Origin: Nannocystis sp.
Lineage (GTDB): Bacteria > Myxococcota_A > Polyangia > Nannocystales > Nannocystaceae
DNA length: 36,680 nucleotides
Assembly: GCF_013812955.1 (NCBI RefSeq)
Contig: NZ_JACCSO010000719.1
Span: forward strand, 1 to 36,680
Reading direction: 5' to 3'
Of this stretch, positions 17,100 to 36,680 are shown piece by piece (position 1 is the first letter of the stretch; each line of letters opens with the position of its first letter). A program made the position numbers and the translations under genes. The notes under the pieces were generated by a model. It did no database searches, was not told the DNA's origin, and saw only the letters and a program-made list of their open reading frames with translations.

Positions 17100-18836
17100 A
17101 TGGCTCGTCGCGATCCGCACTCGTACACCGACGACGGACAGGTCGAAACGGAGTCGTTCGACCTCGTCGCGAAGCTCGACTTCGCAGGGAAAGTTCTGCG
17201 CGGCGAGGTCACGCTGACGTTTCGCACGCCGGGTGGCGGCACGCTCGATCTCGATACCCGCGATCTCGAGATCGAGGCGGTCCGCGACGACGCGGAGCGG
17301 GTGTTGCCGTTCACGCTCCATCCCGCCGAGCCGATCCTCGGTGCGCGGCTGGCGATCGAGCTTCCCGAGGGGACCGGTGCGATCCGCATTCGCTACCGCA
17401 CGAGCCCCGACGCCTCGGCGCTGCAATGGCTGGCACCCGCGCAGACCGCCGGAGGGCAGCACCCGTTTCTGTTCTCGCAGTGTCAGGCGATCCACGCGCG
17501 CTCGGTGATTCCTCTCCAGGATTCGCCGCGGCTTCGCGTCCGCTACACCGTCGAGCTCACCGTGCCGAAGACGCTGCGTGCGGTGGTCGCGGCCGCGCAC
17601 CGCGGGCGGACGGAGGATGGCGAGCTCGCCACCGAGCGCTACGAGATGCCGCAGCCGATTCCGCCGTACCTGTTCGCGTTCGCGGTCGGCGATCTCGCGT
17701 CGCACGATCTGTCGCCGCGCAGCCGGGTGTGGGCGGAGCCGAGCGTGTTGCAGAAGGCCGCGCACGAGTTCGCGGGCGTCGAGGCCATGATCGAGGCTGC
17801 CGAGCAGCTGTTCGGGCCGTACGACTGGGAGCGGTTCGACATCCTGACGATGCCTCCTTCGTTTCCGTACGGCGGCATGGAGAACCCACGGCTGACGTTC
17901 CTGACGCCGACGCTGCTCGCCGGCGATCGCTCGCTGGTCGGCGTGGTGGCGCACGAGCTCGCGCATTCGTGGACCGGGAACCTCGTCACCAACGCGAACG
18001 CCGAGCACTTCTGGCTCAACGAAGGATTCACGGTGTTCGCGGAGCGCCGGATCCTCGAGGCCATCGACGGGTCCGACGTCGCCGCGCTCGACGCTGCGCT
18101 CGGACGCAAGGAGCTCGATCACGCAGTCGAGCGATTCAAGGAGCAACCGGGGCTGACCCGGCTGCGCACCCACCTCACCGGCATCGATCCCGACGACGCG
18201 TTCTCGCAGGTCCCGTACGAGAAGGGCTACTTCTTCCTGTGCGCGCTCGAGCAGGCGACCGGTCGCGACGCGTTCGAGGCCTGGCTCAAGAGCTACATCG
18301 CCGCGTTCCGGTTCGGCGCGATCACCACTGACGACTTCATCGTTCACTTCGAGCACGCGCTGCCCGGCGTGCTCGCGAAGGTCGACGGCGAGCGCTGGAT
18401 CAACGGCGAAGGCGTGCCGGAGGATGCACCCAGGCCGCGCTCCGATCGGCTCGCTGCGATCGAGGCGATCGGGATCGAGCTGCCCGAACCGAAGGTCGCG
18501 TCGCGCTGGACCCCGGTCGAGTGGCAGCTTCACCTCGAGGCGGGCAACCGGTCGGCCGAGACCTGTCGCGTCCTCGACGCCGCGCACGGCCTGACCGCGA
18601 GCACGAACTACGAGGTGCTGGTGTCGTGGCTGACGCTCGCGCTGCGCTGTCGCGTGCTCGAGGTGCTCCCGCGCGTCGAGCAGGTGCTCGCCGAGGTCGG
18701 GCGCATGAAGTATCTGCGGCCCCTGTACTCGGCGCTGCGCGAGGTCGATGCCGCGCGCGCGGCGACGGTGTTCGCGGCCAACCGCGCCGGCTACCACCCG
18801 ATCGCGCGGCAGATGGTTGAAGGGCTGCTCACTTAG
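17100..18836 (+). CDS. M1-family zinc metallopeptidase (leukotriene A4 hydrolase/aminopeptidase-like)
   Basis: [67 protein letters not shown] and HEXXH-(18)-E motifs. Confidence 0.95.
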
Positions 18837-20406
18837 CTTCGAGATATGCGACGAGCGCTCCGACCATGTCGTCGGCGGCCAGCGTCACCAGGCCGCGCTG
18901 ACCGCCCGGGATGTCGTTGACCAGGATCGCGAATGCGATCACGTGATTGCTCTCGACGGCGACGTAACCCGCCAGCGTCTTCACGCGATCGAGCGTGCCG
19001 GTCTTCGCACGCACGCGGCCCATCGCGGGCTTGCCCTTGAACCGCCGCGCGAGCGTGCCGTCGTAGCCGCCGGTGGGAAGTGATGCGACGAGGTCGGGTC
19101 CGATCCGGTAGTCCCGGTGGGCCGCGGCGAGCAGCGAGACCAGCTGCTTGGCGGACACCTCCGTCGACGCGAACAGGCCGGAGCCATTTTCGCTACGATA
19201 CGTCCCCGTCACTCCGATCTCCGCGAGCCTGCCGCGGACCGCGGCAACGCCATCCGCCCACGTCGCGTTCGGTGCCGCCTTGGTCTCGGCGCCGAGCGTC
19301 TTCATCACGCACTCGGCGACGTAGTTGTCGGACGACTTGTTCATCGACCGCAGCACGTCGGCGAGCGTGGCGCTGTCGTGGGTGGCGATCAGCTTGCTGC
19401 TCGCGGGCACGGTTCCGAAGCTGACCGACCGACGGCCGAGCTTGACGCCGTTCTCGGCGAGCGCGCGCAGGAAGACCTCGGCCGCGAACCGCGCAGGATC
19501 GTCGACGCGGCGGCGGAGATCCCACGACCCCTGACCTTGTCGGATCGTTCCGGTCAGCTCGAGCGCGATCTGATCGCGGCGCGGCTTGGCATCGAGGCGC
19601 AGCCGGGTGCGGCCCTCGGTGACACTGGTGACCTCGTCCTTGGTGAGCTTGAGGTAATCGCCGAGCGACGGATCGACCGTGACCTTCGCCTTGCCCTCGG
19701 GCTGCGCGAGCACGGTGACCGTGTACGAGCTGCGATTGACGCCGAAGCTCGCGACCGGCGCGCGGAACGCGGCGGTCTCCTTCGGTTGCTCGTTGAAGTG
19801 CGGTGGCTCGGTGACGTTGTCGAAGTAGGAGCCATCGACGACCAGGTTGCCCTCGACGCTGAGCACGCCGCGCGCCGCGACATCGTGCGCGAGCTGGCGG
19901 AGGGACTCGAGCGAGAGCATCGGATCGCCGCGGCCCTTGATGTAGAGGTTACCGGTGACCTTGCCGTCGACGTCGGGGAGCGAGGTCGCATGGACCGACG
20001 TCCGCCAGCGAAACCCGCCGCCGAGCCCGCGCAGCGCGGCCACCGAGGTCAGGAGCTTTGCGTTGGACGCCAGGTTGAGCCCCTTCTCGGGCTCCTGCGC
20101 CACCAGGATCGCACCCGTGGTCAGATCCACCGCGTAGTAGCCGACCTTCGCGCGCGACAGCTGCGGTCGCGAGGTCAGGGCCGTGGTGAACTTCTCCTTG
20201 AGCCAGCCGGCGCGCAGAGCCGGGTTGGTCGGCGCGACGATCGCGCTACCGCTGCCGGTCACGCCGTCGTCGTCATCGTCGACGCTGGGTGGAGCGGGAT
20301 CGGCGGAACCAGACCCCGAGCCTGGTTGCGATGCCGCCGGCCCGCCGCCCATACTCGCCAGGAGCCCGACGACGAGTAATGACGGAAGCCTCCGTGAAGA
20401 GATCAC
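18829..20406 (-). CDS. dacB: D-alanyl-D-alanine carboxypeptidase/endopeptidase (S13, PBP4 family)
   Basis: SNAKLL (SxxK), MNKSSDNYVAE (SxN), RVRAKTGTLDRVKTLAGY (KTG); signal peptide. Confidence 0.9.
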   Translation of the reverse strand: MISSRRLPSLLVVGLLASMGGGPAASQPGSGSGSADPAPPSVDDDDDGVTGSGSAIVAPTNPALRAGWLKEKFTTALTSRPQLSRAKVGYYAVDLTTGAILVAQEPEKGLNLASNAKLLTSVAALRGLGGGFRWRTSVHATSLPDVDGKVTGNLYIKGRGDPMLSLESLRQLAHDVAARGVLSVEGNLVVDGSYFDNVTEPPHFNEQPKETAAFRAPVASFGVNRSSYTVTVLAQPEGKAKVTVDPSLGDYLKLTKDEVTSVTEGRTRLRLDAKPRRDQIALELTGTIRQGQGSWDLRRRVDDPARFAAEVFLRALAENGVKLGRRSVSFGTVPASSKLIATHDSATLADVLRSMNKSSDNYVAECVMKTLGAETKAAPNATWADGVAAVRGRLAEIGVTGTYRSENGSGLFASTEVSAKQLVSLLAAAHRDYRIGPDLVASLPTGGYDGTLARRFKGKPAMGRVRAKTGTLDRVKTLAGYVAVESNHVIAFAILVNDIPGGQRGLVTLAADDMVGALVAYLEAK

Positions 20407-21944
20407 CTGCCAACGCTATCACCGCCGCCTTCGCCGTGCTCGCCACTCTTGGCTGCACCGCGCGGCGGCGGACGCCCGACGATACGCTGGTGGTCTTGAT
20501 CGAGTCCGCGATGGTGACGGGTGACCCGCGCTACGCGATCACCGGCTACGACCGCAAGCTCGCGCACGTCATCGCGCCGGGCCTGACCATCGTCGATTCG
20601 CCGACGCTCGAGCCGCGGATGGGGCTCGCGACGAAGGTGACGCGCGTCGACGATCTGACCTGGGATGTCGAGGTTCGCGCCGACGCCAAGTTCTCCGACG
20701 GACTCCCCGTGCGTGCCGACGACGTCGCCGCGACCTACCAGGATCTGATCGCGCCCGACTCCGACAGCATGTTCCACAAGCAGTTCGACGACCGGTTCAC
20801 CAAGGTTGTCGTGACGTCGCCGCACGTCGTTCGGTTTCACCTCAAGTCGCCGCTCGCGACGTTCCAGACCGACATCGATTTCGGCATCGTCTCCTACCAC
20901 CACGGCAAACCGGAGCGAGGCAGCGGGATCGGTGCAGGGGCGTACATGGTTCGCGAGATCACGTCGACCGAGGTGCTGCTCGACGTCAATCCGCACTACT
21001 ACGGCCCGAAGCCGAGCATCCCGCACGTCGAGATCAAGATCGTGCGCGACAACGCCGCGCGTCTGCTGATGCTGGTCGGCGGTTCCGCCGATCTGGTGCA
21101 GAACGCGACCCGGCTCGATCTCGTCGACGAGGTTCTCGATCGACCGCGCGTGCGGATCGAGTCAGGGCCGAGCGTGTTCCTGACGTACTTGCTGATGAAC
21201 AACACCGACCCGGTGCTCCGCGACAAGCGCGTGCGCCAGGCGATCGCGCTCGCGATCGATCGCCCGCAGATCATCTCGGCCAAGTTCGGCGGCCGAGCGC
21301 AGCTCGCCACCGGGCTGCTCCCCCAGACCCACTGGGCCTACGCGAAGGGGATGAAGAGCTGGGATCACGATCTCCGGCGTGCGAACCAGCTGCTCGACGA
21401 GGCCGGCTTCAAGGATCCCGACGGGGAGGGTCCGCGGCCGCGATTCTCGCTGACCTACAAGACCAGCTCCGACGCGTTCCGGATCGCGGTCGCGCGCGTG
21501 ATCGCCGCGCAGCTCGCGCGGGTCGGGATCGAGATCGACGTCCGCCCGTTCGAGTTCGCGACGTTCTTCGCCGACATCAAGAAGGGCAGCTACCAGCTCG
21601 GCTCGATGCAGACCGCCGAGATCACCGAGCCCGATTTTTACTTCACGTATTTTCACAGCTCGTGGATCCCGAACGAGAAGAACCCGGATGGCTACAACCG
21701 CTGGCGCTACATCAACCCCGTGGTCGACAAGCTGACCGAGGCCGGCCGCCGCGAGCTCGACCGCACCAAGCGGATCGCGATCTACGATCAGATCCAGCGG
21801 ATCGTCGCCGAGGACGTGCCGATCATCCCACTGTTCCACGAGGACAACGTGGTGCTGCTGAATCGGGACGTGGAGGGCTTTACGATCACGCCAAACGCTC
21901 GGTTGATCGGCATCGCCACGGCCTCGAAAAAGCCGTCTGACTAG
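20379..21944 (+). CDS. ABC transporter substrate-binding lipoprotein, family 5 (peptide/oligopeptide type)
   Basis: MTEASVKRSPANAITAAFAVLATLGCTARRR lipobox; LTWDVEVRADAKFSDGLPVRADDVAATYQDL; RVRQAIALAIDRPQII; IYDQIQRIVAEDVPIIPLFHEDNVVL. Confidence 0.88.
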   Translation: MTEASVKRSPANAITAAFAVLATLGCTARRRTPDDTLVVLIESAMVTGDPRYAITGYDRKLAHVIAPGLTIVDSPTLEPRMGLATKVTRVDDLTWDVEVRADAKFSDGLPVRADDVAATYQDLIAPDSDSMFHKQFDDRFTKVVVTSPHVVRFHLKSPLATFQTDIDFGIVSYHHGKPERGSGIGAGAYMVREITSTEVLLDVNPHYYGPKPSIPHVEIKIVRDNAARLLMLVGGSADLVQNATRLDLVDEVLDRPRVRIESGPSVFLTYLLMNNTDPVLRDKRVRQAIALAIDRPQIISAKFGGRAQLATGLLPQTHWAYAKGMKSWDHDLRRANQLLDEAGFKDPDGEGPRPRFSLTYKTSSDAFRIAVARVIAAQLARVGIEIDVRPFEFATFFADIKKGSYQLGSMQTAEITEPDFYFTYFHSSWIPNEKNPDGYNRWRYINPVVDKLTEAGRRELDRTKRIAIYDQIQRIVAEDVPIIPLFHEDNVVLLNRDVEGFTITPNARLIGIATASKKPSD

Positions 21945-24900
21945 CGTCCGAGCCGAGCATCGAGCGTCTTCAAGAGCTCGATGATCTGGACCATCTTGTT
22001 CGCGAGCAGCGTGTCGCCGGCGCGGCTCTCGACCGCGGCACCGACGACCGGTAACAGCGTCTGCTCGATCCGGCGGATCTGTCCGAGCAGCTGTTCGGGA
22101 TCGATCGACCCAGGATCCGTACCGAGCCGCGGCGAGTTGCCGTTGCCGTTCCCGGTGAAGCTCTGGGCGTGCCGCAGCGACTCGACGATCGCGTCGAGCC
22201 GCGGTGCGAGCCAGCGCTCGAGCTCGGGGTCGCTGCCGTTGCCGGTGCGTGCGGGGTGGCGCTGCTGGGATTCGGCGAGCCAGGCGGCGAGCGAGTCGAG
22301 TCGCGGGCCGAGCCACGATTCCGCGGACTCCGGCGGTGGTGGTGGGGGCGGGGGCGACTTCGACGCCGCGAGCGAGACCACGCCGCGCAGCTGCTTGAGC
22401 TCGGTGGCGACATCGGATTGCTTCGCGGCGGCGATCGCTTCCTTGATCGCGCCGAGGTCGGCGCCGAGACCCGAGAGCGTACCGACCAGCTTGGTCACCG
22501 GATCCGACTCTGCCCCGCCCATCCGGCGCTGGCGCACGAACTCGGCCTTCATCTCGGTCCAGCGCTTCTCGATCTCGGGCGTCATCCGGCCGCGGAGCTC
22601 GGCCAGCTTGAGGAGGTTCTGTTCGGCGGCGGTGGTCAGCGTCTGCGATTCGCCGCGGTAGTGATCGTCGACCAGCTGCTGGAGCTCCTGCGGGGTCATC
22701 GCCGAGACCGTCTTCTCGGCGATCTTGTTCATGTTGCGGTAGCTGCCCTGCAGCTTGAACGGCGGCTCGGTGCGATAGGCATCCGCCTGCGCGGCCGACC
22801 GGATGTACTCCGCGTTGACCTTGAGCAGCGTCTCCTGCGCGACGAACAGGTGGCGCATCACCGCCATGATCTCCTCGAGCTCGACGCCCGAGTAGCCATG
22901 CGAGAGCTCGGTGGTGGCGATCGGCTCGCCCTTCGCCATCCGCACCAGCTTGTAGACGTCACCGAGGTCCCGCGTCGCGAGCGGGTTGAGCGTCGGGTTC
23001 GACGTCAGCGCATTCTCGAGGAACGACAGCGCGAAGGCCTCCGCCTTGCCGCCGAGGACGTCACCGAGGTTGTAGACGTCGGCGCGGTTCGCGAGCATGT
23101 CGGGGATCTTGAAGGCCTCGCCACTCTCGGTGTACGGGTTGCCGGCCATCACGACGCAGAACTTCTTGCCGCGCAGGTCGTACGTGCGCGTCCGGCCGCG
23201 CCACACGCCCTCGATCTTGCGCTGCGCATCGCAGAGCGAGATGAACTTCTGGAGCAGCTCCGGCGACGTGTGCTGGATGTCGTCGAGGTAGAGCATCACG
23301 TTGGTGCCCATCTCGAGTGCGAGCGAGACCTTCTCGATCTCCTGCCGCGCGGTCGCGTTCGGAGCTTCGGCCGGATCGAGCGACGTCACGTCGTGGCCGA
23401 GCGCCGGGCCGTTGACCTTGACGAACGCGAGGCCGAGGCGCGCCGCGACGTACTCCATCAACGTCGTCTTGCCGTACCCGGGTGGCGAGATCAGGAGCAG
23501 CATGCCCATCTGATCGGTGCGCTTGGCCGCGCCGGATGCGCCGAGCTGCTTCGCGAGGTTCGCGCCGCACAGCGGCAGGTACACCTGATCGATCAGGCGA
23601 TTGCGCACGAACGACGACATCACCTTCGGCTTGAGCTCGTCGATCCGTAGCCGCTTGCGCTCCTGCGCGGCGATCTCGGCCTTGACCGTTCGGTAGGCGC
23701 GGAACGCCGGCACCGTCTCGGTGCGGAACCGCGACAGCCGCGCAGTCATCTCGTCGAGCCGGATCGGTAGCTGACCGCCGGTGACGCGCGCATGGCGTCC
23801 GAGCAGGCCCGTGACGGTGGTCTCGATGACCGCGCTCGACGTGTCGCGCGCGAGGTTCGGGGTCGCGAGATACGCCGCCGCTTCGATCGCCGCCGCGGCG
23901 AGCTCGGGTTTGCGTGCGACGATGCCGTCGACCCAGGCGCGGGTCAGCGCGAGAGCCGCGCCGGGCACGGTCTGCAGCACGCGGACGTCGTCGTCGAACC
24001 CGGGGCGCGCGGCGCGTGCGGTGAGCTCGGCGTGCAGTGCCTCGACGATCGCGATCGCGTTGCCGCTCACCACAAACCGCGGGTTCGAGACGGATAGCTC
24101 GCGCACCACATACTGCGTGGCGAGCTCCGCATCGGCCGCCGCCAGCCCCGCGGCGATCAGCTGCGGTTCACGCTCGACGAACCTCGCGATCGCAGCAGCG
24201 ATCTCGACGGCGAGCTGGTTGCGCCCACCGCGATCGCCGAGGACGTCGGCGAGCCGCGCGAGGCTCTGCGCGGAGCGATGCCAGCGATGGCGGGCCTGGG
24301 CGTCGTCGCGCATGCCCTGCGTGACCTCGTTGCCCCAGTACATCACCGCGAGCGCGCGTGCCGCGGCGGGGTAGGCGAGTAACCCGGCGCCGTCGCGCAT
24401 GGCGAGCAGGCGTTCCAAGATCTTCGCGGCATCGTGATCGTGGACGCCGCGCTCGTAGCCCTCGTCGTACCGCCCCTGGGCGATGCCCTTGAGCAGATCC
24501 TCGAGCTTGCCGAGACGAGCCGCGTCGTGCAGCGCCGCGATCGTCAACCCGTTGGCACCGGCCTCGGCATCGGCCAGGATCGACGCCGCGAGGTACTCGC
24601 CGCGATAGACCTCGGCGGACTCGCTCGGCAGGTCCTGGTTCCACAGCGGCTTGGCGGCGAGCAGGCGTTCATCTTCGAGCGGCTCGTAGAAATCGGTGCC
24701 GGCGAGGTGCACGGCGAGGCCGTCCTCGTGCGGGACGATCATCAGCTCGAGCGGCTGCGTGTTGACCGGGAACCGGTGCTCGCCAAACCGGATCGTCTCG
24801 CCGCCGCCCTCGAACAGATCTGCCTTGTCGCGCTGACCGCGCAGCGCGTCCTGCCGCGCGCTCTTGAGCTTGGCCTCGAGCTCGTCGGCCTTGACCGCGT

Positions 24901-27421
24901 CGCCGAGCGATCCCATCTCCGCGGAGATGTCGCGCAGCTTCTGCACCATCGCATCGGACGCGAAGTACGCGTTGACCTCGTCGGCGGTGGCCAGCGTCGA
25001 CGATCGACGAGCCACGCCCTCGAGGATCCGCTGTGCGGCCTTCTGGAGGTTCGCGGCCCGGCGCTGCCGCTCCGCCGCGAGCAGCTGCTTGCGCGCACCG
25101 ACCGAATCGACGATCTCCTCGCGCTTGGTCGTCAGCTCCGCGGTCAGCTCGTCGATGTCCGCGAACCGGCCCTCGAGCTCCTCGAGCTGGACGAGCAGGC
25201 GCGTCAGCTCCTGATCACAACGCTCCGGCGAGTCGCACTGCGCGAGCGCCGAGGCCACGCTCTGCGTCAGCAGCTTGACCTGGGCTCCGAACTCCGCGCG
25301 GCCTTCCTTGCCCGCGAGCTCGCGGTAGCGACCTTCGATCGTCGCGCGCGCGCGGTTCACCTGACCGAACGCGTCGGTGATGTTCTCGAGGATGATCGTC
25401 CGCTTCGTCGTGTCGTCGATCTTGAGCGACCCGATCACGTTGCCGAGCAGATCGAGACCCCCGGCGACCTTGTCGATGTCCTCTCGGACCGGCTTGATCT
25501 CGACCGCGGTCGGCAGCTCTGCCACCCGCGAGGCGAGCGCATCCGCGCGACCGACGAGCTCGCCGAACGCCTGACCGCGCGCGAGGAGCGCGACGCAGTC
25601 ACTGGTGACGCGATCGAACGCGGTCGCGACTTCCTTCTCGAGCGCCTCGAGCCGGGCGACGTCGACGAATCGGATGTCCTTCTTCGAGATCAGCGCGCCG
25701 CGCAACCCTCGCAGCCCGGTGAGGGCCTCGAGGAACGGATCGATCTTCTCCCATCCCTCGCTGCGCGTCGCGCGCAACTTCTCGACGACCAGGGCCTCGG
25801 CCTCGACGACCGCATTCCTGGCCGCGGCTTCGAGCGCGATGACCTTGTCGTACTCGTCGAGGATCAACTTCGCGGTGCTGCGAACATCGCCGACCGCGGT
25901 CTTGAGGTCGCCGGCATCCCCGTGCCCGAGCCAGTAGTACGCGTCGACCGCGCGGGTCGACAGCCCGAGGATGTCCTCGAACGTCGTCCGCTGCGGCTTG
26001 TCGGCGGAGGCCAGACGCGCGATCGACAGCGCGTCGGACAGGCCGCGCACCAGATCCGCATTGCCGACCTTCGCGAGGTAGCTGCCGTCGGTGGGCGCAC
26101 TTGCCGCGAACTCCGCCGACGTGAACGGCGTCTTCCACACCTGCATCGGGTGGACGCGCGTCGGCTCCGTCGACGTTCCGCGCATCACCACCATGCGGCC
26201 GTCGGGGAACAGCGAGTAGCCATTGCACTGGATCGGCGACGCGACCGACTTCTCGATCAGGTTGTACGCCGCGAGCACGTACGTGCCGTCGCGACCACGG
26301 TGATAGACGTAGAGCACGTCCTCGCCGTTCGGGCTCTTGAGCTCGCGCTCGAGGACGTAGTCGGTGTGGTCGCCGTCGAACTTCTTGTAGTCGCCGCCGA
26401 CCAGCACGTAGCCGCCGGGAAACACGATCCCGTGGTCCTCGGGCAGGTTGCGGCAGCCCTGACCGATGCCATCGGCGCGCACGACCTTCTTCGAGCGCGC
26501 GTCGAACACCAGGTACCGCCACGCGGTCTCGCGGAACGGCAGGATCTTGAGGACCACCAGGCCGACGCCACGGGCGGAGGTCGACCCGATCGGTGCGTAG
26601 AAGATCTTCGCGTCGTCGAGGGTCTGGTTCGCGTCGTCGACGGGCTCGCTGTAGACGCCCTGACCGGTCTCGGTGTTGTCCTCGACCTTGATCGTGAGAT
26701 CGCCGTTGATGCATTCGACGAACATCGCGTCGAGCAGGTTGTAGTGCGGGTGCTTGCCCGATCGCTGATCGTCGCGGGTGACCTCGCGCCACTCGAAGTC
26801 GTGCGAGGGCGGGGCGAGCGCGCCGTAATCGCGATCGCCGCGATCGTCGACGTACGCGATCCGGCCCGACGGCTCGATCCGCCAGCGCAGGACCTTCGAT
26901 TCTTTCCACGTCGCACCGGACTGGAACACCGCGAACAGCTGGGTGTCGGTGCGCACCAGCTGGCGAAGCTGCGCGTCGCGGTAATACCGGTAGAGGTTCG
27001 AAAAGTCGCGCGCGAGCGTGGCGTCGAGCAGGAACGCGCCGGCCTCGGCGTCGCGCGGTAATGGGGCAGTGTCGAAGGCGCTATCCGCGTTCGCCTGTGC
27101 GAGCGGCTCGAACCGATGCAGCGCGAGGACGTCCTCGAGCTTGGTCTGGTCCTTGAGCCCGAGGAACACATTGTAGCCGAGCAGGAGGTTTCCCCCGACC
27201 GCGACGATGTCGGCGGGCGCGCAGTTGTGCTCGGTCCGCACCCGCTCGGTCGCGATCAGCTGCGGCTCGGTCGAGCCGAACACGGACTTGCGCCGCGCGT
27301 TCAGCGCCTCGGTGCGCTTCGCGAGCTCGGCACCAGCGGTGGCGAGACGCGCCCGCAAGACCTCGTAGTTGCCGCCGGTGAGGGCGGCATCTACGTCGGC
27401 AGGTTTCGTCGGCTGCGCCAT
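21941..27421 (-). CDS. Giant AAA+ ATPase, DUF3686-like ('DNA repair ATPase' annotation family)
   Basis: 1826 aa; beta-rich N-terminus, long coiled-coil/helical middle, AAA+ near C-terminus: Walker A LLLISPPGYGKTTLMEYVAARLG, Walker B VMLYLDDIQH, sensor-1-like FCVVMAGNPYTESGEAF; Pro8 linker and helical C-terminal tail. Confidence 0.88.
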   Translation of the reverse strand: MAQPTKPADVDAALTGGNYEVLRARLATAGAELAKRTEALNARRKSVFGSTEPQLIATERVRTEHNCAPADIVAVGGNLLLGYNVFLGLKDQTKLEDVLALHRFEPLAQANADSAFDTAPLPRDAEAGAFLLDATLARDFSNLYRYYRDAQLRQLVRTDTQLFAVFQSGATWKESKVLRWRIEPSGRIAYVDDRGDRDYGALAPPSHDFEWREVTRDDQRSGKHPHYNLLDAMFVECINGDLTIKVEDNTETGQGVYSEPVDDANQTLDDAKIFYAPIGSTSARGVGLVVLKILPFRETAWRYLVFDARSKKVVRADGIGQGCRNLPEDHGIVFPGGYVLVGGDYKKFDGDHTDYVLERELKSPNGEDVLYVYHRGRDGTYVLAAYNLIEKSVASPIQCNGYSLFPDGRMVVMRGTSTEPTRVHPMQVWKTPFTSAEFAASAPTDGSYLAKVGNADLVRGLSDALSIARLASADKPQRTTFEDILGLSTRAVDAYYWLGHGDAGDLKTAVGDVRSTAKLILDEYDKVIALEAAARNAVVEAEALVVEKLRATRSEGWEKIDPFLEALTGLRGLRGALISKKDIRFVDVARLEALEKEVATAFDRVTSDCVALLARGQAFGELVGRADALASRVAELPTAVEIKPVREDIDKVAGGLDLLGNVIGSLKIDDTTKRTIILENITDAFGQVNRARATIEGRYRELAGKEGRAEFGAQVKLLTQSVASALAQCDSPERCDQELTRLLVQLEELEGRFADIDELTAELTTKREEIVDSVGARKQLLAAERQRRAANLQKAAQRILEGVARRSSTLATADEVNAYFASDAMVQKLRDISAEMGSLGDAVKADELEAKLKSARQDALRGQRDKADLFEGGGETIRFGEHRFPVNTQPLELMIVPHEDGLAVHLAGTDFYEPLEDERLLAAKPLWNQDLPSESAEVYRGEYLAASILADAEAGANGLTIAALHDAARLGKLEDLLKGIAQGRYDEGYERGVHDHDAAKILERLLAMRDGAGLLAYPAAARALAVMYWGNEVTQGMRDDAQARHRWHRSAQSLARLADVLGDRGGRNQLAVEIAAAIARFVEREPQLIAAGLAAADAELATQYVVRELSVSNPRFVVSGNAIAIVEALHAELTARAARPGFDDDVRVLQTVPGAALALTRAWVDGIVARKPELAAAAIEAAAYLATPNLARDTSSAVIETTVTGLLGRHARVTGGQLPIRLDEMTARLSRFRTETVPAFRAYRTVKAEIAAQERKRLRIDELKPKVMSSFVRNRLIDQVYLPLCGANLAKQLGASGAAKRTDQMGMLLLISPPGYGKTTLMEYVAARLGLAFVKVNGPALGHDVTSLDPAEAPNATARQEIEKVSLALEMGTNVMLYLDDIQHTSPELLQKFISLCDAQRKIEGVWRGRTRTYDLRGKKFCVVMAGNPYTESGEAFKIPDMLANRADVYNLGDVLGGKAEAFALSFLENALTSNPTLNPLATRDLGDVYKLVRMAKGEPIATTELSHGYSGVELEEIMAVMRHLFVAQETLLKVNAEYIRSAAQADAYRTEPPFKLQGSYRNMNKIAEKTVSAMTPQELQQLVDDHYRGESQTLTTAAEQNLLKLAELRGRMTPEIEKRWTEMKAEFVRQRRMGGAESDPVTKLVGTLSGLGADLGAIKEAIAAAKQSDVATELKQLRGVVSLAASKSPPPPPPPPESAESWLGPRLDSLAAWLAESQQRHPARTGNGSDPELERWLAPRLDAIVESLRHAQSFTGNGNGNSPRLGTDPGSIDPEQLLGQIRRIEQTLLPVVGAAVESRAGDTLLANKMVQIIELLKTLDARLGR

Positions 27422-27430
27422 GCTAGCTCC

Positions 27431-27656
27431 GTTGACCTTGACTTGAACTTGAACTCCACCGTCGACGTTGACCTCGACCGAGCGAGCGTGACGTTCGACC
27501 GGCGTCGGCCGCGAGCACCGTCGAACACGCGTGTTCGACGGTGACTCGGCGAGACGTCAGGAGCAGTTGCACGAGGCCGGGCGTGACCCGGCGGACCCGG
27601 CGGACAATGTCCACGTGCGCGTTCACGTTCACGTTCAGGTTCACGTTCAGGTCAAC
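27431..27656. repeat. Nested inverted repeats with GTTCAC/GTTCAG-type hexamer arrays in the flotillin-AAA intergenic region
   Basis: 28-bp perfect palindrome CACCGTCGAACACG|CGTGTTCGACGGTG at 27516-27543; outer inverted arms 27431-27454 (GTTGACCTTGACTTGAACTTGAAC) and 27633-27656 pair at 20 of 24 positions. Confidence 0.85.
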
Positions 27657-27667
27657 GCTGACGTTGT

Positions 27668-29767
27668 TTAGCTGACCTTGTCGTCGCCGACGCCGAGTTG
27701 CTTGGCCTTGTCGAGCAACGCCTGCAGCTTGGTCTTGGTGCCCTCGTCGGCCTTGCTCATGAGGCCAGCAAGCACGTCGGAGAGGTTGTGCTTGCCGTTG
27801 CCGTTGCCATTGAGCTTGTCCCCGATCGCGCGCTTCACGACGTCGGAGCCGCCGACCACCTCGTCGATCGAGCTGCCGAGCGACACCGCCTTGACGAAGC
27901 GGTCGAAGAACTGACCGTCGCCGCCGACGATCTTGATGTCGGCGTGCGTCATCGCCTCGGCCATCACGCGGGATTGCGCGTCGGTCATCTGGATCCGCGC
28001 CTTGATCTGCTCGAGCGCGATCATCCGATCGTTCTCGAGGCGGAGCCGGAACTCCTCGTGCTCGCGAGCGCTGCCGTCGAGATGCTTCATCGCATCGGCC
28101 TTCTCGGCGATACCCCTCGCCTCGGCGAGCATGCGCTTCTCGATCGCGCCTGCTTCGGCTTCCTTGCCCGCGACCTCGGCGAGCAAGAATTCGCGCCGCG
28201 ACGACGCCTCGGCGTGGCCCTTCTTCTCGATCGCGATGGCTTCCGCCTCGCGACCCTGCGCCTCGGCCATCGCCTTGCGCTTGACGTTCTCCGCGAGGAC
28301 GGTGCCTTCCTTGTCGGTGATCTGGACCTGCGCATCGCGCACGCGCGACTCCGCGAGGCCGACCTTCTCGGTCGCCAGCGCATCGGCTTCCTTGACGCGC
28401 ACGTGGGCGAGGCCCTCGGCGGCAAACTCGGCCTGCGCGCCTTCCGACCGGCGGATCTGCGCACGCGCTTCCTTGTCGCTCGCCTCCATCGAGGCCTCGG
28501 CAAGGATCAGCTGCTTCTTGGCGAAGGACTGCGCGACCTGCTGCTCGGCCTCCGCCTTCTTGATGTCCTTGATGAAGATCTCCTGCGCCGCAGCCTCGGC
28601 GTGGAGGATCGTCACGTGCTTGTGGCGCTTCGCCTCGCTGTCGGTCCGGAGGTCCTTGATCGCCTCTTCCTCGACCGCGACGGTCTTGTCGACGGCGATG
28701 CGCGCGCGGATGATGTCCGCGATCGAGCGCTTCTCGGTCTCGAGTGCCTTGTTCATGTCGATCGAGCCGAGCTCGACCTCGCGACGGCGACCGACCTCTT
28801 CGAGGTCATGCGCCTTCTGAACGCGCACCTTCTCGATCTCGACCTCGCGGATGCGGCCCTGCTCCGAGACCTGCACCGAGCGCAGCTTCGCCTGCTCGGC
28901 CATCTGGATCGCTTCCTCGGCGCGCTGACGCTCGATGTGGGTGCGCTTCTCTTCCTCGAGGCGGAACCGGTTGGCTTCGTTCTCCTCGCGCGCAACGGCG
29001 ACCGCGACTTCCTTGTTCTTCTTCGCTTCGGCCTCGGCCTGCTGCTGCTCGAACCGGTACAGGGCTTCCTGCGACGTCAGGTTCGACTTGCCGAGCTCCA
29101 TCTTCTCGGTCTGCCGGAGCTGGTTGGTCGCGATGTTCGCGATCGTGGTGATCTTGGTGATCTTCTCGATGCCGAGAGAGTCGAGCACGTTGTTGGGGTC
29201 GAGGATCTCGACCGGCGTCTGCTCGAGGTAATCGATCGCGGCGTCGTCGAGGACGTAGCCGTTGAGGTCCTTGCCGATGACCTGGATGATCTGGTCCTTG
29301 AACACGTCGCGCTGGGTATAGAGCTGCTCGAACTCCATCTTCTTGCCGACGGTCTTGAGCGCCTCGGAGAACTTGGCGCTGAACAGCTCCTCGAGCGTCG
29401 ATTGCTGCGACGCGCGAATACAGCCGATCGATTGCGCGACCCGCAACACGTCGTCCTTCGTCTTGTTCACGCGGACGAAGAACGTGACCTTGATATCCGC
29501 GCGGATGTTATCTGCGCAGATCAGGCCCTCCTTGCCTTTGCGTGCGATCTCGATCGTCTTCACCGAGAGATCCATGACCTCGGCCTTGTTGACGATCGGC
29601 AGCACGACAGCACCGCTGAACGTCACCTTCGGCTCGGTGCCCATCTTGTTGACGATCAGAGCTCGTCCCTGATCGACTTGTCGCCAGGTCCGCGCGACGA
29701 GAACGAGGATGCCGAGGAGGAGAACGCCTCCGCCGACGATCAATGCGATCAACATCTGCTGTCCCAT
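27668..29767 (-). CDS. Flotillin/SPFH-domain protein (YqiK-like)
   Basis: MGQQMLIALIVGGGVLLLGILVLVARTWRQVDQGRALIVNKMGTEPKVTFSGAVVLPIVNKAEVMDLSVKTIEI: N-terminal TM plus SPFH; long Ala/Glu/Lys-rich flotillin coiled coil. AGGAG upstream of ATG 29767. Confidence 0.95.
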   Translation of the reverse strand: MGQQMLIALIVGGGVLLLGILVLVARTWRQVDQGRALIVNKMGTEPKVTFSGAVVLPIVNKAEVMDLSVKTIEIARKGKEGLICADNIRADIKVTFFVRVNKTKDDVLRVAQSIGCIRASQQSTLEELFSAKFSEALKTVGKKMEFEQLYTQRDVFKDQIIQVIGKDLNGYVLDDAAIDYLEQTPVEILDPNNVLDSLGIEKITKITTIANIATNQLRQTEKMELGKSNLTSQEALYRFEQQQAEAEAKKNKEVAVAVAREENEANRFRLEEEKRTHIERQRAEEAIQMAEQAKLRSVQVSEQGRIREVEIEKVRVQKAHDLEEVGRRREVELGSIDMNKALETEKRSIADIIRARIAVDKTVAVEEEAIKDLRTDSEAKRHKHVTILHAEAAAQEIFIKDIKKAEAEQQVAQSFAKKQLILAEASMEASDKEARAQIRRSEGAQAEFAAEGLAHVRVKEADALATEKVGLAESRVRDAQVQITDKEGTVLAENVKRKAMAEAQGREAEAIAIEKKGHAEASSRREFLLAEVAGKEAEAGAIEKRMLAEARGIAEKADAMKHLDGSAREHEEFRLRLENDRMIALEQIKARIQMTDAQSRVMAEAMTHADIKIVGGDGQFFDRFVKAVSLGSSIDEVVGGSDVVKRAIGDKLNGNGNGKHNLSDVLAGLMSKADEGTKTKLQALLDKAKQLGVGDDKVS

Positions 29768-29822
29768 AACCACTCCTCTGCCGGCGACATCCCGGCGGCT
29801 CCCATGCTGAAAACGAACTCGT

Positions 29823-30557
29823 TCAGGCGGACTGACCCGTGTCGCCTTCCCGTGGCGACGCGAGCAGCATATCGGTGACCGGCTCCACGACGTAGGCTTG
29901 GCGCTCGGTATCGAAGTCGATGATCAAAGCTTTGTCATTACGAGAAAGTCCTGCTTTGTCGCAACGGATTGGAATCACCAGCACGGTCCCGCCGTCCTCG
30001 ACCATTCCCTGACCGAACCCGTCGTCGACCGTGCCGGTCGTGACCGTGACGCTGTGTCCGACATAGTCCTGATTCGACTTACCCTCGCGAAGCTCGAACA
30101 CGCCACCGAGCGGACGCACGAGCAAGCCTGCGATCGGCAGCCCGACGATCAACGTCGCCGGAAGGATCGTCGGACCGAGCCAGCTCGCCGGGCCGATCAC
30201 GTCCGGCAAGTAATGCATCGCCAGAAGTGAGATGCACCAGCAGACCAAAAAGATCACGGACACCGAGATCGTGATCGGCACCTTCGCGAGGCCGAGCCCA
30301 CTCCACAGGCCGCCGCCACCATCGACGTCGAGGTCGTGATCGCCGCCGTGTCCGATCGCCTTGCCGGCCCCGGCGACATCGCCGATGTCGTGACCGCCGC
30401 CGCCGAGCGCCTTGCCCGCGCCCGAGATGTCGGCGTCGCCGAACATGTCGATGTCGAGCGCGCCGATCAGGACGAACAGCCAGTAGATGAGACAGATGCC
30501 GAGCCCGATCGTGAACACGACCGTCGGAAACTGTTGCGCTGCTTCGATCAACATCAT
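29823..30557 (-). CDS. YqiJ-like membrane protein with C-terminal OB-fold/NfeD-like domain
   Basis: MMLIEAAQQFPTVVFTIGLGICLIYWLFVLIGALDIDMFG..., Gly/Asp-rich loop, three further TM stretches, then VGHSVTVTTGTVDDGFGQGMVEDGGTVLVIPIRCDKAGLSRNDKALIIDFDTERQAYVVEPV. GGGAGG before ATG 30557; immediately upstream of flotillin. Confidence 0.85.
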   Translation of the reverse strand: MMLIEAAQQFPTVVFTIGLGICLIYWLFVLIGALDIDMFGDADISGAGKALGGGGHDIGDVAGAGKAIGHGGDHDLDVDGGGGLWSGLGLAKVPITISVSVIFLVCWCISLLAMHYLPDVIGPASWLGPTILPATLIVGLPIAGLLVRPLGGVFELREGKSNQDYVGHSVTVTTGTVDDGFGQGMVEDGGTVLVIPIRCDKAGLSRNDKALIIDFDTERQAYVVEPVTDMLLASPREGDTGQSA

Positions 30558-30703
30558 GTCGACCTCCCCACCGGCCGAACACTGACCAGGTACGACGTCT
30601 TTACCAAACTGCGTCCTGCTGTAAGGACTCTCGACAGCGTCGAAAAGGCCCGATCGGACGACGCGGTGCACGATTCCAGGCGAACCAGATGCGTCATGAC
30701 CAC

Positions 30704-30964
30704 TTAGATGCCCTCAAAACCGCCCTTGGAGGCGTTGACACTGCTGTGGTACGTAACGTGGCTCTTATGGTCATGGATCCTGGAACCGAAGAACTGTTTC
30801 TCGGCATCGCACATGCGTTGTTCGTCAATCGCCTTCACGTCCTTCGGCTCACCGAGATCGTTCGTCTCGGTGTGCGTCCCGATCCGGCCGACCAGAACAT
30901 GGAAGTTCCGTCCGAGATCGATCGCGATCTGATCCAGCAAGCCTTCGCCTACGTCATGCATCAT
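30704..30964 (-). CDS. Possible small protein of unknown function (86 aa; strand assignment uncertain)
   Basis: MMHDVGEGLLDQIAIDLGRNFHVLVGRIGTHTETNDLGEPKDVKAIDEQRMCDAEKQFFGSRIHDHKSHVTYHSSVNASKGGFEGI; by eye third codon positions are more G/C-rich in this frame than in the overlapping + ORF 30689-31027 over its left part. Confidence 0.35.
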   Translation of the reverse strand: MMHDVGEGLLDQIAIDLGRNFHVLVGRIGTHTETNDLGEPKDVKAIDEQRMCDAEKQFFGSRIHDHKSHVTYHSSVNASKGGFEGI

Positions 30965-31076
30965 TTCCCGCAATCGTTCATCGGGAAGATCGAAGCAGCG
31001 AAGGCGCGCTGGGTTCGCCTCGCCTAGCAGCCCCCTGGAGCTCTCTCCTGTTCGTGCTTATGGTGCGACCACAGCC

Positions 31077-31577
31077 ATGGCGTATATCCCGAGCGTCGTA
31101 AACGATTCGCGGTCGAGTCCGAGCTTCGGGCTCGAGGATCTCCAGCGTTTGATCCCGTTCGCGCTGGCGCTGTTCGATGACCGCGGGCCCGGCTCGGACT
31201 ACGCGAACGCGAAGGACAAGCTTCGCGCGTGGGCGAAGGAAGATCCGATCGACGCGCTCGCGACGGTCGTGATCGGCGGCGGGTTTGCGTTCTATCTCGC
31301 GGAGAAGGATTCCAACCCGGGCTGCACGTCGCCCCTCGACGGCATCCTCTACATGTCGACCGCACTCTCGGTCGGCTACGACAACCTGTTTCCAACCACG
31401 CCAGCGGGCCACGTGCTCGCCACGTTCGCGCAGACGTTCGGTCCCTCGCTCGCCGCCAACGCGTTCGAGGACCCGGCTATGGTGAAGCGCGCGCGGGAGG
31501 AAGAGGCCGCCGAGGTCAATCGCCAGATCCTGGCGCGCCTCGAGGACATCGTTCGAGTGCTCGAAGCGAAGGCCTAG
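31077..31577 (+). CDS. Small protein with K+-channel-like pore segment (Ion_trans_2-like, degenerate filter)
   Basis: LATVVIGGGFAFYLAEKDSNPGCTSPLDGILYMSTALSVGYDNLFPTTPAGHVLATFAQTFGPSLAANAFE resembles TM1-pore helix-TVGYGD-TM2; C-terminal helix. Confidence 0.65.
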   Translation: MAYIPSVVNDSRSSPSFGLEDLQRLIPFALALFDDRGPGSDYANAKDKLRAWAKEDPIDALATVVIGGGFAFYLAEKDSNPGCTSPLDGILYMSTALSVGYDNLFPTTPAGHVLATFAQTFGPSLAANAFEDPAMVKRAREEEAAEVNRQILARLEDIVRVLEAKA

Positions 31578-31715: not shown

Positions 31716-33062
31716 CTAGTCTTCGTCGCGTTCGGCGCGCTGCTGATCGAGAACAGCGCGGCGCTCGGCGAGCTCCTTCTCGAAGCCCGAATCGGCGGGC
31801 TCGTAGATCCGCTCGCCGACCAGGGCATCCGGCAAGTAGTCCTCGACGACGTAGTGACCCGCGAAGTCGTGCGGGTACTTGTAGCCCTGGCCGTGACCCA
31901 TCGATCGATCGATCGCGGTCGAGCCCGGGCGATAGCGAGCCGGCACCGGCAGCGCACCTCGGTCGCGCACCAGCTTGCGAGCGGCGGCGTACGCGGTGAG
32001 CGCGCGATTCGATTTCGGCGCGAGCGCGAGATAGGTGACTGCCTGGGTCAGCGGCAACACGCCCTCTGGCAAGCCGACCAGCTCGAAGGCCTGCAGCGCC
32101 GCGGTGGCAACCACCAGCGCTTGCGGGTCGGCATTGCCGACGTCCTCGCTCGCGAAGATCACGAGCCGGCGCAGCACGAACCGCGGATCCTCTCCGGCCT
32201 CGATCATCCGGGTCATCCAGTACACGGCGGCATCGGGATCCGAGCCGCGCATGCTCTTGATGAACACCGAGACGACGCCGTAATGCTCGTCGCCCGCCTT
32301 GTCGTACATCAGGCTCTTGCCCTGCGCGGCCTCGGCGACATGGGCGGTGCTGATCGCCGCGACCGGAGCATCGCCAGCCGCGCGGCGTGCGAGATCCGCG
32401 GCGACCTCGAGGATCGAGTACATCCGGCGCGCATCGCCGGTGGCCGCGGCAACCAGCTGCGCGCGGGTGTCGTCATCGATCGAGACGTGGAGGTCGGCGA
32501 GCCCGCGCTCGCGCTCGGCCAGGGCACGCGTCGCGAGCTGACCGAGATCGTCCTCCGAGAGGGCCTCGAGGCGGACCACGCGGCAACGCGAGAGCAGCGC
32601 GGCGACCACGCCGAAGCTCGGGTTCTCCGTGGTCGCACCGATCAGCGTCACGGTGCCGGCCTCGACGTGCGGCAGCAGGGCGTCCTGCTGGGTCTTCGAG
32701 AACCGGTGGATCTCGTCGATGAACAGCAGCGTGCGCGCACCGAACTGGTCGCGGCGTTCGCCGGCCTTGGCGACCGCTTCGCGGACATCCTTGACGCCGG
32801 CGTCGACCGCGGAGAGCGCGACCAGCTCGGCCTTCATGATCTCCCCGAACAGACGCGCGAGCGTGGTCTTCCCGGTGCCGGGAGGCCCCCACAGGATGAG
32901 AGAGGGAACCGTTCGACCGGGCCCGAGATCGGAAAGGATCCGGCCGGGGCCGACCAAGTGGGTCTGGCCGACGATCTCGTCGATCTTGCGCGGACGCATC
33001 CGCTCGGCCAGCGGCTGGCCGATGTGACGCTTGGCGGCAGAACGGGCAAACAGGTCCATCAC
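31716..33062 (-). CDS. rarA: Replication-associated recombination protein A (AAA+ ATPase)
   Basis: PLAERMRPRKIDEIVGQTHLVGPGRIL, ILWGPPGTGKTTLARLFGEI, LLFIDEIHRFSKTQQDALLPHVEAGTVTLIGATTENPSF, YKYPHDFAGHYV. Confidence 0.95.
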   Translation of the reverse strand: MMDLFARSAAKRHIGQPLAERMRPRKIDEIVGQTHLVGPGRILSDLGPGRTVPSLILWGPPGTGKTTLARLFGEIMKAELVALSAVDAGVKDVREAVAKAGERRDQFGARTLLFIDEIHRFSKTQQDALLPHVEAGTVTLIGATTENPSFGVVAALLSRCRVVRLEALSEDDLGQLATRALAERERGLADLHVSIDDDTRAQLVAAATGDARRMYSILEVAADLARRAAGDAPVAAISTAHVAEAAQGKSLMYDKAGDEHYGVVSVFIKSMRGSDPDAAVYWMTRMIEAGEDPRFVLRRLVIFASEDVGNADPQALVVATAALQAFELVGLPEGVLPLTQAVTYLALAPKSNRALTAYAAARKLVRDRGALPVPARYRPGSTAIDRSMGHGQGYKYPHDFAGHYVVEDYLPDALVGERIYEPADSGFEKELAERRAVLDQQRAERDED

Positions 33063-34208: not shown

Positions 34209-35164
34209 CTAGGACTTATCGAGGACGCGCGACAGCAGGTGCAGCGTGCGTGGCGGCAGCGTCTCGCCGCGCCACTTGATCGCACGCGCGAGGACCACGG
34301 CCTTGTCGCGGTTGCCGAGCGCCGGGCGCTCCGCGAACAGCCGATCGCCGACACCCTCGATCTTCTCGAGGATCCGCATGCCGCCGTGCCACGTCAGCGC
34401 GAGCTCGACCGCTAGATCGGCGCCGACCAGATCGATCAGCGGACGCGAGCGCTCGAACAACGCGCGGGTGCGAGCGACCTCGTAGCGGACCAACGAGCCG
34501 ACTTGCGGCGTGATCCGGCGATGCTCGATGTCGCCCTCGACAACGCCGAAGTGCCGGAGATCCTCGGCAGGCAGATACACGCGACCGCGCTGCCAGTCGG
34601 CGGGCACGTCCTGGATCAGCCGGGTGAATGCGAGCGCGGTGCCGAGATCCTCGGCGAACGCGTGGAGCTCGGGTGCGCGATAGCCACCGATGTAGAGGAG
34701 CAGGCGGCCGATCGGCTCGGCGGCCTGGCGGGTGTAGCTACGGAGCTCGTCGAACGTCGCGTAGCGTCGGCGCTCGAGATCGGTGCGGAAGCCGGAGAGC
34801 AGCTCGCTGAACTCGGTGATCGGCAGCGCGAACTTGTCGACGGTCTCGGCGAGCGCGACGAACACCGGATGCTCGGCGTGACCGCGATACGCGAGGTGGA
34901 GCTGCTCTTCCCAGCGATCGAGCTCGCGGGCACGGCGACCCTCGAAGGCGAGCTCGTCGGCAAAATCGTCGGCAACACGCGCGAACGCGAACAGCGCGAA
35001 GATGTGCTTGCGCAGCTCGCTGCGCGCGAACATCGAGGCCACCGGATAGTTGTGATGGCGAGCGCGGCACAGCGCTTCGCAGTAGCGATAGCAAGCCTCG
35101 AGCTCGAGCGACGGCGGGAGCGGCACGGCGAGGGCGGGGGTGCGAGCGACTCCGAGGCGATGGA

Positions 35165-35168
<4 letters not shown>
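34209..35168 (-). CDS. Squalene/phytoene synthase family protein (HpnC-like)
   Basis: HHNYPVASMFARSELRKHIFALFAFARVADDFADE, AFTRLIQDVPADWQRGRVYLP; GTG start in GTGA overlap with the upstream gene stop. Confidence 0.88.
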
Positions 35169-36361
<1,193 letters not shown>

Positions 36362-36384
36362 GAGCGTGAAGGAGACTAAGGGTT

Positions 36385-36680
36385 CTACTGCGCCCCGACT
36401 TGGGTGTCCACGCCACTGTCGTCGACGGTCAGTTGCAGTGGCTGGCACCCGAGTTCGATGAGCGATCGGGTGGCGATCGTTACGTCTGCCGTTGCCGGGA
36501 CGACGGCAATCGCGATATCGCCGCCGCCGGCCCCAGTGGTCTTCGCAGTGCCGCCAAGTGCCTGCATCGCCGTGCGTGCCAGCATCACGCACGCCGGCAC
36601 CAGGTCCACACCGGTCGTATGTGCGAGCCGATCGATGGCGACCGCGGCGAGGCGAAGGGCCGCCAGGAGCGCGGTCGCTG
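36385..36680 (-). CDS. GHMP-family kinase, C-terminal part (mevalonate-pathway kinase likely; 5' end beyond right edge)
   Basis: ...ATALLAALRLAAVAIDRLAHTTGVDLVPACVMLARTAMQALGGTAKTTGAGGGDIAIAVVP...: GHMP motif 3 (KTTGAGGGD); frame open to the window edge; adjacent to HMG-CoA reductase. Confidence 0.75.
   Translation of the reverse strand, partial: ATALLAALRLAAVAIDRLAHTTGVDLVPACVMLARTAMQALGGTAKTTGAGGGDIAIAVVPATADVTIATRSLIELGCQPLQLTVDDSGVDTQVGAQ

What the first reader, a model, noticed from the sequence alone, without database searches (positions are those of the whole stretch)
21941..30557. YqiJ-like / flotillin / 1826-aa coiled-coil AAA+ three-gene module
Seen: three co-oriented genes in the order OB-fold membrane protein, SPFH/flotillin, giant ATPase, with nothing between them except a 246-bp repeat-bearing spacer. 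Established: E. coli yqiJ-yqiK encodes the first two family types. From memory, DUF3686-type ATPases carry the name 'DNA repair ATPase'. Inference: the ATPase is the motor of a flotillin membrane-microdomain machine, acting in membrane remodelling, protein-complex extraction or stress/phage response, so the DNA-repair name is probably misleading. The biological role of such a triad is not known to me.
Basis: partly seen in the sequence, partly recalled or inferred. Interest (0 to 1): 0.78.

Follow-up and report, generated by a model that had tools for sequence, protein, structure and literature searches.

The report
Flotillin, YqiJ and AAA+ motor operon
Three neighbouring genes encode a membrane scaffold (flotillin), its small membrane partner and a giant ATP-driven motor that databases misleadingly call a DNA repair ATPase; the genes stay together across distant bacteria, so they probably form one membrane-remodelling machine, and a small potassium-channel-like gene beside them looks like an undescribed extra partner.

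Summary
In detail: YqiJ/YuaF-like 3-TM protein (29823-30557), flotillin (27668-29773) and an 1826-aa DUF3686 AAA+ protein (21941-27421), all on the minus strand. The linkage is real and ancient. Of 115 de-replicated DUF3686 loci (Myxococcota, Actinomycetota, Bacteroidota, Eremiobacterota, Pseudomonadota, Deinococcota), 113 have a co-directional flotillin directly upstream and 103 also YqiJ; the two exceptions keep the flotillin elsewhere. The ATPase-linked flotillins form their own clade, apart from E. coli YqiK, and the trees of motor and flotillin agree. AlphaFold gives a propeller-like domain, a long coiled coil and one AAA+ domain resembling RuvB/MoxR, without transmembrane segment or protease. 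The triad is not new: Ravi et al. 2024 (PMC11237479) describe it with PspA-CesT/Tir; I recover that longer operon in Bacteroidota and plasmid pQBR103. Best reading: a flotillin-scaffolded ATP-driven remodelling machine for membrane stress, mechanism inferred. No phage or defence evidence. New here: a small K+-channel-pore-like gene (31077-31577) just outside the given coordinates; its family lies beside flotillin/YqiJ in 38 of 50 loci examined, including ATPase-less YqiJ-flotillin-channel operons. The window contig is probably a contaminant in its MAG.

The parts
21941..27421 (-). DUF3686-family giant AAA+ ATPase, 1826 aa, no TM segment (annotated 'DNA repair ATPase' in RefSeq relatives)
   Evidence: Pfam PF12458 E=6e-180, DUF7902, AAA_5/AAA; AlphaFold models; RefSeq names
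25934..27328 (-). DUF3686 domain (aa 32-496), beta-propeller-like in the predicted model
   Evidence: Pfam; AF2 pLDDT 87.6, about 26 strands aa 54-430; leading compact Foldseek hits are propellers (Sec12, Elp123, paraoxonase), E about 1e-5 but low TM-scores
24812..25934 (-). long helical/coiled-coil region (about aa 496-870) including DUF7902 (aa 617-701)
   Evidence: Pfam, DSSP of model
22502..23611 (-). AAA+ domain and C-terminal conserved region: FVRN 1271, Walker A SPPGYGKT 1312-1319, Walker B LDDIQH 1379-1384, sensor-1 MAGNPY 1425-1430, arginine-finger-like PDMLANRAD 1440-1448, LQGSYRNM 1557-1564
   Evidence: Motif positions, near-invariance across 123 ATPases, Foldseek to RuvB, NorQ, CbbQ
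27422..27667 (.). 246-bp flotillin-ATPase spacer with 6-bp-period repeats and a 28-bp palindrome (27516-27543)
   Evidence: not generally conserved
27668..29773 (-). flotillin: one N-terminal TM, SPFH domain, long Ala/Glu-rich coiled coil, 701 aa
   Evidence: Pfam Band_7; 27% identity to E. coli YqiK over 444 aa, E=2e-31; own clade
29823..30557 (-). YqiJ/YuaF-like (NfeD2-type) protein, 3 TM segments plus C-terminal OB-like domain
31077..31577 (+). small K+-channel-pore-like protein (166 aa, filter-like SVGYDN), divergent from the triad; probable fourth component in Myxococcota
   Evidence: Pfam Ion_trans_2 in 10 of 11 members; PDB profile best hit 1orq (potassium channel) E=9e-9; linkage
30689..31027 (+). 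112-aa ORF between YqiJ and the channel-like gene, conserved only in the closest relative

Best explanation
The three genes encode one membrane-attached, ATP-driven remodelling machine. Flotillin and the YqiJ/YuaF-like protein form an oligomeric SPFH assembly on the inner membrane (established for SPFH families elsewhere, inferred here). The soluble DUF3686 ATPase, through its propeller-like domain and coiled coil, docks on the cytosolic face of that assembly, and its single AAA+ ring, presumably a hexamer, pulls apart or re-models membrane-bound client proteins or assemblies under envelope stress. In lineages where PspA and CesT/Tir are in the same operon, the PspA coat is a likely client or partner. 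Shown: gene identity, conserved linkage, clade-specific flotillin, concordant trees, domain layout and intact ATPase motifs. Inferred: docking, hexamerisation, clients, stress role. It has no protease domain, so it is more like Vps4 or a MoxR chaperone than like FtsH.
For: Flotillin immediately upstream and co-directional in 122 of 124 loci, or 113 of 115 after removing >97% duplicates and short contigs; YqiJ in 103 of 115. The two exceptions, G132 and G205, encode the same flotillin elsewhere. Tree concordance of ATPase and flotillin: Mantel r=0.86, 65 of 93 splits shared. All 78 ATPase-linked flotillins separate from 18 ATPase-less ones plus YqiK by a split with support 1.0. Soluble ATPase, one TM in flotillin, three in YqiJ. 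AAA+ motifs near-invariant. Fold like RuvB/NorQ/CbbQ. CesT/Tir-PspA-YqiJ-flotillin-ATPase operons in Bacteroidota and YjfI-PspA-...-YqiJ-SPFH-ATPase on pQBR103. Published context: PMC11237479. FloA-NfeD holds unfolded proteins without ATP (PMC11222466), so a motor would add an energy-driven step.
Against: No experiment on any member was found. No fusion of ATPase and flotillin was seen. Many flotillin/YqiJ pairs, including E. coli, lack the ATPase, so it is not needed for every flotillin function. Structural matches of the propeller have low TM-scores. The AAA+ fold also resembles the DNA motor RuvB, so the fold alone does not exclude a DNA role. PspA is not adjacent in the window or in the Myxococcota loci examined.
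Confidence: 0.58

Rival explanations
1. The ATPase is a true DNA-repair or nucleoid motor that happens to be co-regulated with a membrane module, as the database name suggests.
For: RuvB is the best Foldseek hit by E-value and among the weak sequence hits. The long coiled coil resembles SMC/RecN-type proteins in general character. In several Bacteroidota loci an XRE/S24 (LexA-like) regulator sits divergent from the operon, which could mean damage-inducible control. In the window an MgsA/RarA-type AAA+ gene lies nearby (31716-33062).
Against: 98% adjacency to flotillin, not to repair genes. Recurrent neighbours are PspA, CesT/Tir, a channel-like gene and general regulators. RarA adjacency did not recur. 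MoxR-type CbbQ/NorQ chains give better target-normalised TM-scores (up to 0.62) than full-length RuvB (about 0.35).
Confidence: 0.1
2. The ATPase is an assembly factor or disassembler of the flotillin scaffold itself (Vps4-like recycling), not a remodeller of other clients.
For: One-to-one pairing with a dedicated flotillin clade and concordant trees; published analogy to ESCRT/Vps4 (PMC11237479).
Against: SPFH oligomers elsewhere assemble without such a motor; nothing here identifies the substrate.
Confidence: 0.22
3. The module is an anti-phage defence system.
For: Patchy distribution (45 of 284 Myxococcota genomes; 8 of 297 in the phylum of the Actinomadura locus) and presence on large plasmids resemble accessory defence genes.
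Against: No convincing PADLOC match for the triad or the neighbouring proteins scanned; no copy in phage records or viral contigs; conserved partners are envelope-stress genes.
Confidence: 0.05
4. The module regulates ion conductance: flotillin/YqiJ organises a K+-channel-like pore, and the ATPase loads or gates it.
For: Channel-like family linked to flotillin/YqiJ in 38 of 50 loci in at least three arrangements; SPFH proteins such as stomatin regulate channels in animals (own knowledge).
Against: The channel-like gene was found only in part of Myxococcota and is absent from most triads; the filter is SVGY followed by D, A, C or other residues instead of TVGYG, so conduction is uncertain; hydropathy is only moderate.
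Confidence: 0.1

Closest known systems
PSP-linked operon of Ravi et al. 2024 (PMC11237479): YqiJ/YuaF + band-7/flotillin + 'novel AAA+ ATPase' fused to coiled coil and beta-propeller, with or without CesT/Tir-PspA
   Same: Same three components; the paper explicitly mentions abbreviated operons without PspA, spread across bacteria and archaea.
   Different: Window lacks adjacent PspA-CesT/Tir; the term DUF3686 is in no paper of the library; the adjacent K+-channel-like gene found here is not mentioned in the passages read.
E. coli yqiJ-yqiK and B. subtilis yuaF-yuaG (NfeD2-SPFH2 operons, PMC2636767)
   Same: Same first two family types in the same order.
   Different: No ATPase; YqiK falls outside the ATPase-linked flotillin clade.
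HflKC-FtsH
   Same: SPFH assembly working with an AAA+ enzyme at the membrane.
   Different: DUF3686 ATPase is soluble and has no detected protease domain; FtsH is a membrane AAA+ metalloprotease.
MoxR-class AAA+ chaperones (NorQ, CbbQ, RavA)
   Same: Similar AAA+ core fold; they remodel protein complexes.
   Different: No VWA partner was noted; a propeller-like domain and a long coiled coil are added; RuvB scores as well by E-value.
S. aureus FloA-NfeD (PMC11222466)
   Same: Flotillin plus NfeD-type partner.
   Different: Reported to act without ATP; the window system adds a dedicated ATPase.

Membership tests
Pfam DUF3686 (PF12458) | Profile match above gathering score | tested here: met
   599 bits vs cut-off 25
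Ravi 2024 flotillin/YqiJ/AAA+ triad | YqiJ-type, flotillin and AAA+ genes adjacent and co-directional | tested here: met
Ravi 2024 flotillin/YqiJ/AAA+ triad | AAA+ with N-terminal beta-propeller and coiled coil | tested here: met
   AF2 models and Foldseek, low TM-scores for the propeller
Ravi 2024 flotillin/YqiJ/AAA+ triad | PspA and CesT/Tir genes in the same operon (long form only) | tested here: not met
   Absent near the window triad; one PspA on another contig of the MAG; present in Bacteroidota and pQBR103
SPFH/flotillin | Band_7 domain with N-terminal TM and long coiled coil | tested here: met
YqiJ/YuaF (NfeD2) | About 3 TM plus C-terminal OB fold | tested here: inconclusive
   3 TM; hhalign to YqiJ 94.7%; 2k14 E=0.015; OB fold not modelled
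MoxR AAA+ | MoxR-like AAA+ core | tested here: inconclusive
   CbbQ/NorQ TM up to 0.62, but RuvB has the best E-values
MoxR AAA+ | VWA-domain partner encoded next to it | not tested
   Recurrent-neighbour clustering was not screened with a VWA profile
FtsH-type SPFH-bound AAA+ protease | M41 metalloprotease domain | tested here: not met
   No protease family in Pfam or NCBIfam
DNA repair ATPase | Conserved linkage to DNA repair genes | tested here: not met
   None recognised among recurrent neighbours; one isolated MgsA/RarA gene in the window
DNA repair ATPase | DNA-dependent activity or DNA-damage phenotype | not testable with these tools
   needs bench work
K+ channel pore (for 31077-31577) | Two-TM pore domain | tested here: met
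   Ion_trans_2 in 10 of 11 members (window copy 21.9 bits, just under the 22.5 cut-off); PDB 1orq E=9e-9
K+ channel pore (for 31077-31577) | TVGYG selectivity filter | tested here: not met
   SVGY followed by D, A, C or others
Anti-phage defence system | Match to known defence models | tested here: not met

The most novel reading that the evidence does not exclude
Flotillin/YqiJ assemblies in Myxococcota own a dedicated small K+-channel-like pore subunit. It is encoded directly after flotillin in ATPase-less operons and beside the triad when the DUF3686 motor is present, so a bacterial SPFH scaffold would organise or gate an ion pore, with an AAA+ motor as an optional remodelling arm.
Probability: 0.3. 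Interest if true: 0.8.

Novelty: new variant of a known kind. Interest (0 to 1): 0.55.

Why it matters
A family named 'DNA repair ATPase' in public databases is almost always encoded with one particular flotillin clade, so its name probably misdirects readers. If the motor acts on flotillin assemblies, bacterial membrane microdomains gain an ATP-driven arm comparable in logic to ESCRT-III/Vps4 or HflKC-FtsH. The linked channel-like protein gives a concrete, testable candidate for what a bacterial flotillin scaffold organises.

Tried and rejected
Sequence search of PDB with the ATPase: only P-loop and coiled-coil matches. Flotillin profile vs PDB: nothing at E<=0.001. Defence role: PADLOC, phages and viral contigs all negative or weak P-loop noise. 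Spacer repeats as a conserved element: rejected, gaps vary and only L040 shares the repeat tracts. Two cassettes in one genome as a feature of the window's organism: probably a binning artefact, although G495 and G549 each carry two loci. The 112-aa ORF next to the channel gene is conserved only in the nearest relative. An early gene-calling pass chose shadow ORFs in some loci and was redone.

Full report
What is there. In transcription order on the minus strand they are a YqiJ/YuaF-like protein (29823-30557), a flotillin (27668-29773) and a DUF3686 AAA+ protein (21941-27421). DUF3686 is unambiguous (E=6e-180). The flotillin has a Band_7 domain and 27% identity to E. coli YqiK over 444 residues (E=2e-31). 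The YqiJ assignment is weaker and rests on a family alignment: hhalign to E. coli YqiJ 94.7%, YqiJ_N in 5 of 30 members, PDB profile best hit YuaF 2k14 at E=0.015, and three TM-like segments. The ATPase has no TM-like segment; flotillin has one at its N terminus.

Is the linkage real. I collected 133 loci that encode a DUF3686 protein from whole genomes, genome contigs and plasmids and called genes around them. Of 124 loci with at least 2.5 kb upstream, 122 have a flotillin directly upstream on the same strand, at a median distance of 54 bp. After removing duplicates above 97% identity and requiring 3.2 kb upstream, the figures are 113 of 115 for flotillin and 103 of 115 for YqiJ; among representatives below 80% identity, 75 and 68 of 77. 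The two loci without adjacent flotillin come from genomes that carry the same flotillin elsewhere at 50-55% identity. ATPase and flotillin trees agree (Mantel r=0.86, no permutation of 500 as high; 65 of 93 splits shared). The 78 ATPase-linked flotillins tested separate perfectly, with support 1.0, from E. coli YqiK and 18 ATPase-less flotillins. That is an unrooted split, and the ATPase-less sample is one phylum plus E. coli.

Distribution. DUF3686 is patchy: 45 of 284 genomes in the window's phylum, 8 of 297 in the phylum of the Actinomadura locus and 8 of 297 in that of the Sporocytophaga locus, 1 of 200 in the phylum of the Clostridia MAG, 7 of 58 in that of the Eremiobacterota locus, all in genomes of 7.4 Mb or more. 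It occurs on large plasmids, but no copy was found in phage records or viral contigs.

Architecture. AlphaFold models of residues 1-880 (pLDDT 87.6) and 860-1826 (pLDDT 85.7) give a beta-rich domain, a long helical region, and one AAA+ domain with a poorly ordered tail. Foldseek hits of the first half include many beta-propellers at E about 1e-5, but with low TM-scores, so 'propeller-like' is the safe term. It agrees with the propeller reported in PMC11237479. The AAA+ half matches RuvB by E-value and CbbQ/NorQ (MoxR class) with target TM up to 0.62; a beta-hairpin between the Walker B helix and sensor 1 fits the pre-sensor-1 hairpin superclade (own reading). Walker A SPPGYGKT, an unusual Asp-Asp Walker B (LDDIQH), MAGNPY and PDMLANRAD are nearly invariant. 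There is no protease domain.

Prior art. Ravi et al. 2024 (PMC11237479) describe operons of CesT/Tir, PspA, flotillin, a novel AAA+ ATPase with coiled coil and beta-propeller, and YqiJ/YuaF, and note shorter versions without PspA. My Bacteroidota loci and pQBR103 (YjfI-PspA-rhomboid-DUF2491-DUF350-DUF1190-glutathionylspermidine synthase-YqiJ-SPFH-'DNA repair ATPase') reproduce that longer form, which identifies their ATPase as DUF3686 by operon match (an inference). The term DUF3686 occurs in none of the papers in the library. NfeD-SPFH pairing is older knowledge (PMC2636767).

Mechanism. SPFH proteins form membrane-bound rings and domes (PMC12624060), and S. aureus FloA-NfeD holds unfolded proteins without ATP (PMC11222466). 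A dedicated motor tied to one flotillin clade is most simply an ATP-driven arm of such an assembly, remodelling clients or the scaffold itself. The docking site, the clients and the stress that triggers it are inferences. The DNA-repair reading is not excluded by fold alone, and S24/LexA-like regulators beside several Bacteroidota operons are a caution, but the genomic context speaks for the membrane.

A fourth component. Clustering neighbours of 86 diverse loci brought up a small protein encoded at 31077-31577 (+), outside the given stretch. Its family matches K+-channel pores (Ion_trans_2 in 10 of 11 members; 1orq E=9e-9), but with SVGY followed by D, A, C or others in place of TVGYG and with moderate hydropathy. 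In a phylum sample, 17 of 284 genomes have a strong match and 10 of these have DUF3686, against 45 of 284 overall (Fisher p=3e-5, not corrected for relatedness). In 50 contexts examined, 38 place it within 3.5 kb of flotillin or YqiJ; in 21 it follows flotillin immediately in operons with no ATPase in view, and in at least ten it lies upstream of a triad, divergent or co-directional. Twelve are unlinked. The loci are related to each other, so 38 of 50 is not 38 independent events, but the different arrangements argue for a functional link. No description was found in the library searched; that search is limited.

Caveat on the source. G000 carries two versions of the triad (53% identity) and two of a leukotriene-A4-hydrolase-like peptidase; the same-genus genomes resemble the window copy of that peptidase only at 47-50%. 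The window's tetranucleotides correlate 0.98 with another MAG's contig (L035) and 0.91 with the second triad's contig. The window contig is therefore probably a contaminant in this MAG; this does not affect the conclusions on the triad.

Noticed in passing
window 31077-31577 (+): Small K+-channel-pore-like protein whose family sits beside flotillin/YqiJ genes in 38 of 50 Myxococcota loci examined, including ATPase-less YqiJ-flotillin-channel operons.
   Followed up: yes
window 1-36680 (G000:C607) versus L067 (G000:C500): The contig is probably binned into the wrong MAG: triad and M1 peptidase each occur in two versions, and tetranucleotide usage matches L035 (0.98) better than L067 (0.91).
   Followed up: partly
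window 34209-35168 and 35165-36592 (-): Squalene synthase HpnC and HMG-CoA reductase genes lie 3.7 kb beyond the triad's 5' end; polyisoprenoids are linked to bacterial flotillin domains (own knowledge), but no such cluster recurred at other triads.
   Followed up: partly
window 4972-7377, 9634-12165 (+), 18829-20406 (-): Several peptidoglycan genes (two transglycosylase proteins, one with a transpeptidase domain, and an S13 D-Ala-D-Ala carboxypeptidase) in the same window.
   Followed up: no
window 31716-33062 (-): MgsA/RarA-type AAA+ ATPase next to the channel-like gene; the only DNA-repair-type neighbour seen in the window, not recurrent at other triads.
   Followed up: partly
L158, L160, L163, L164, L104: XRE/S24 (LexA-like) regulators lie upstream of CesT/Tir-PspA-YqiJ-flotillin-ATPase operons in Bacteroidota; in L106, L150, L154, L155 and L157 (actinobacterial type) a regulator with a PucR-like look takes this place (own reading of the sequences).
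   Followed up: partly
window 27422-27667: 6-bp-period repeat tracts and a perfect 28-bp palindrome in the flotillin-ATPase spacer; the tracts, not the palindrome, are shared with L040.
   Followed up: partly
genomes: In the Eremiobacterota-type sample all 7 DUF3686-positive genomes are 7.4-8.4 Mb; the other 51, nearly all smaller, lack it.
   Followed up: no
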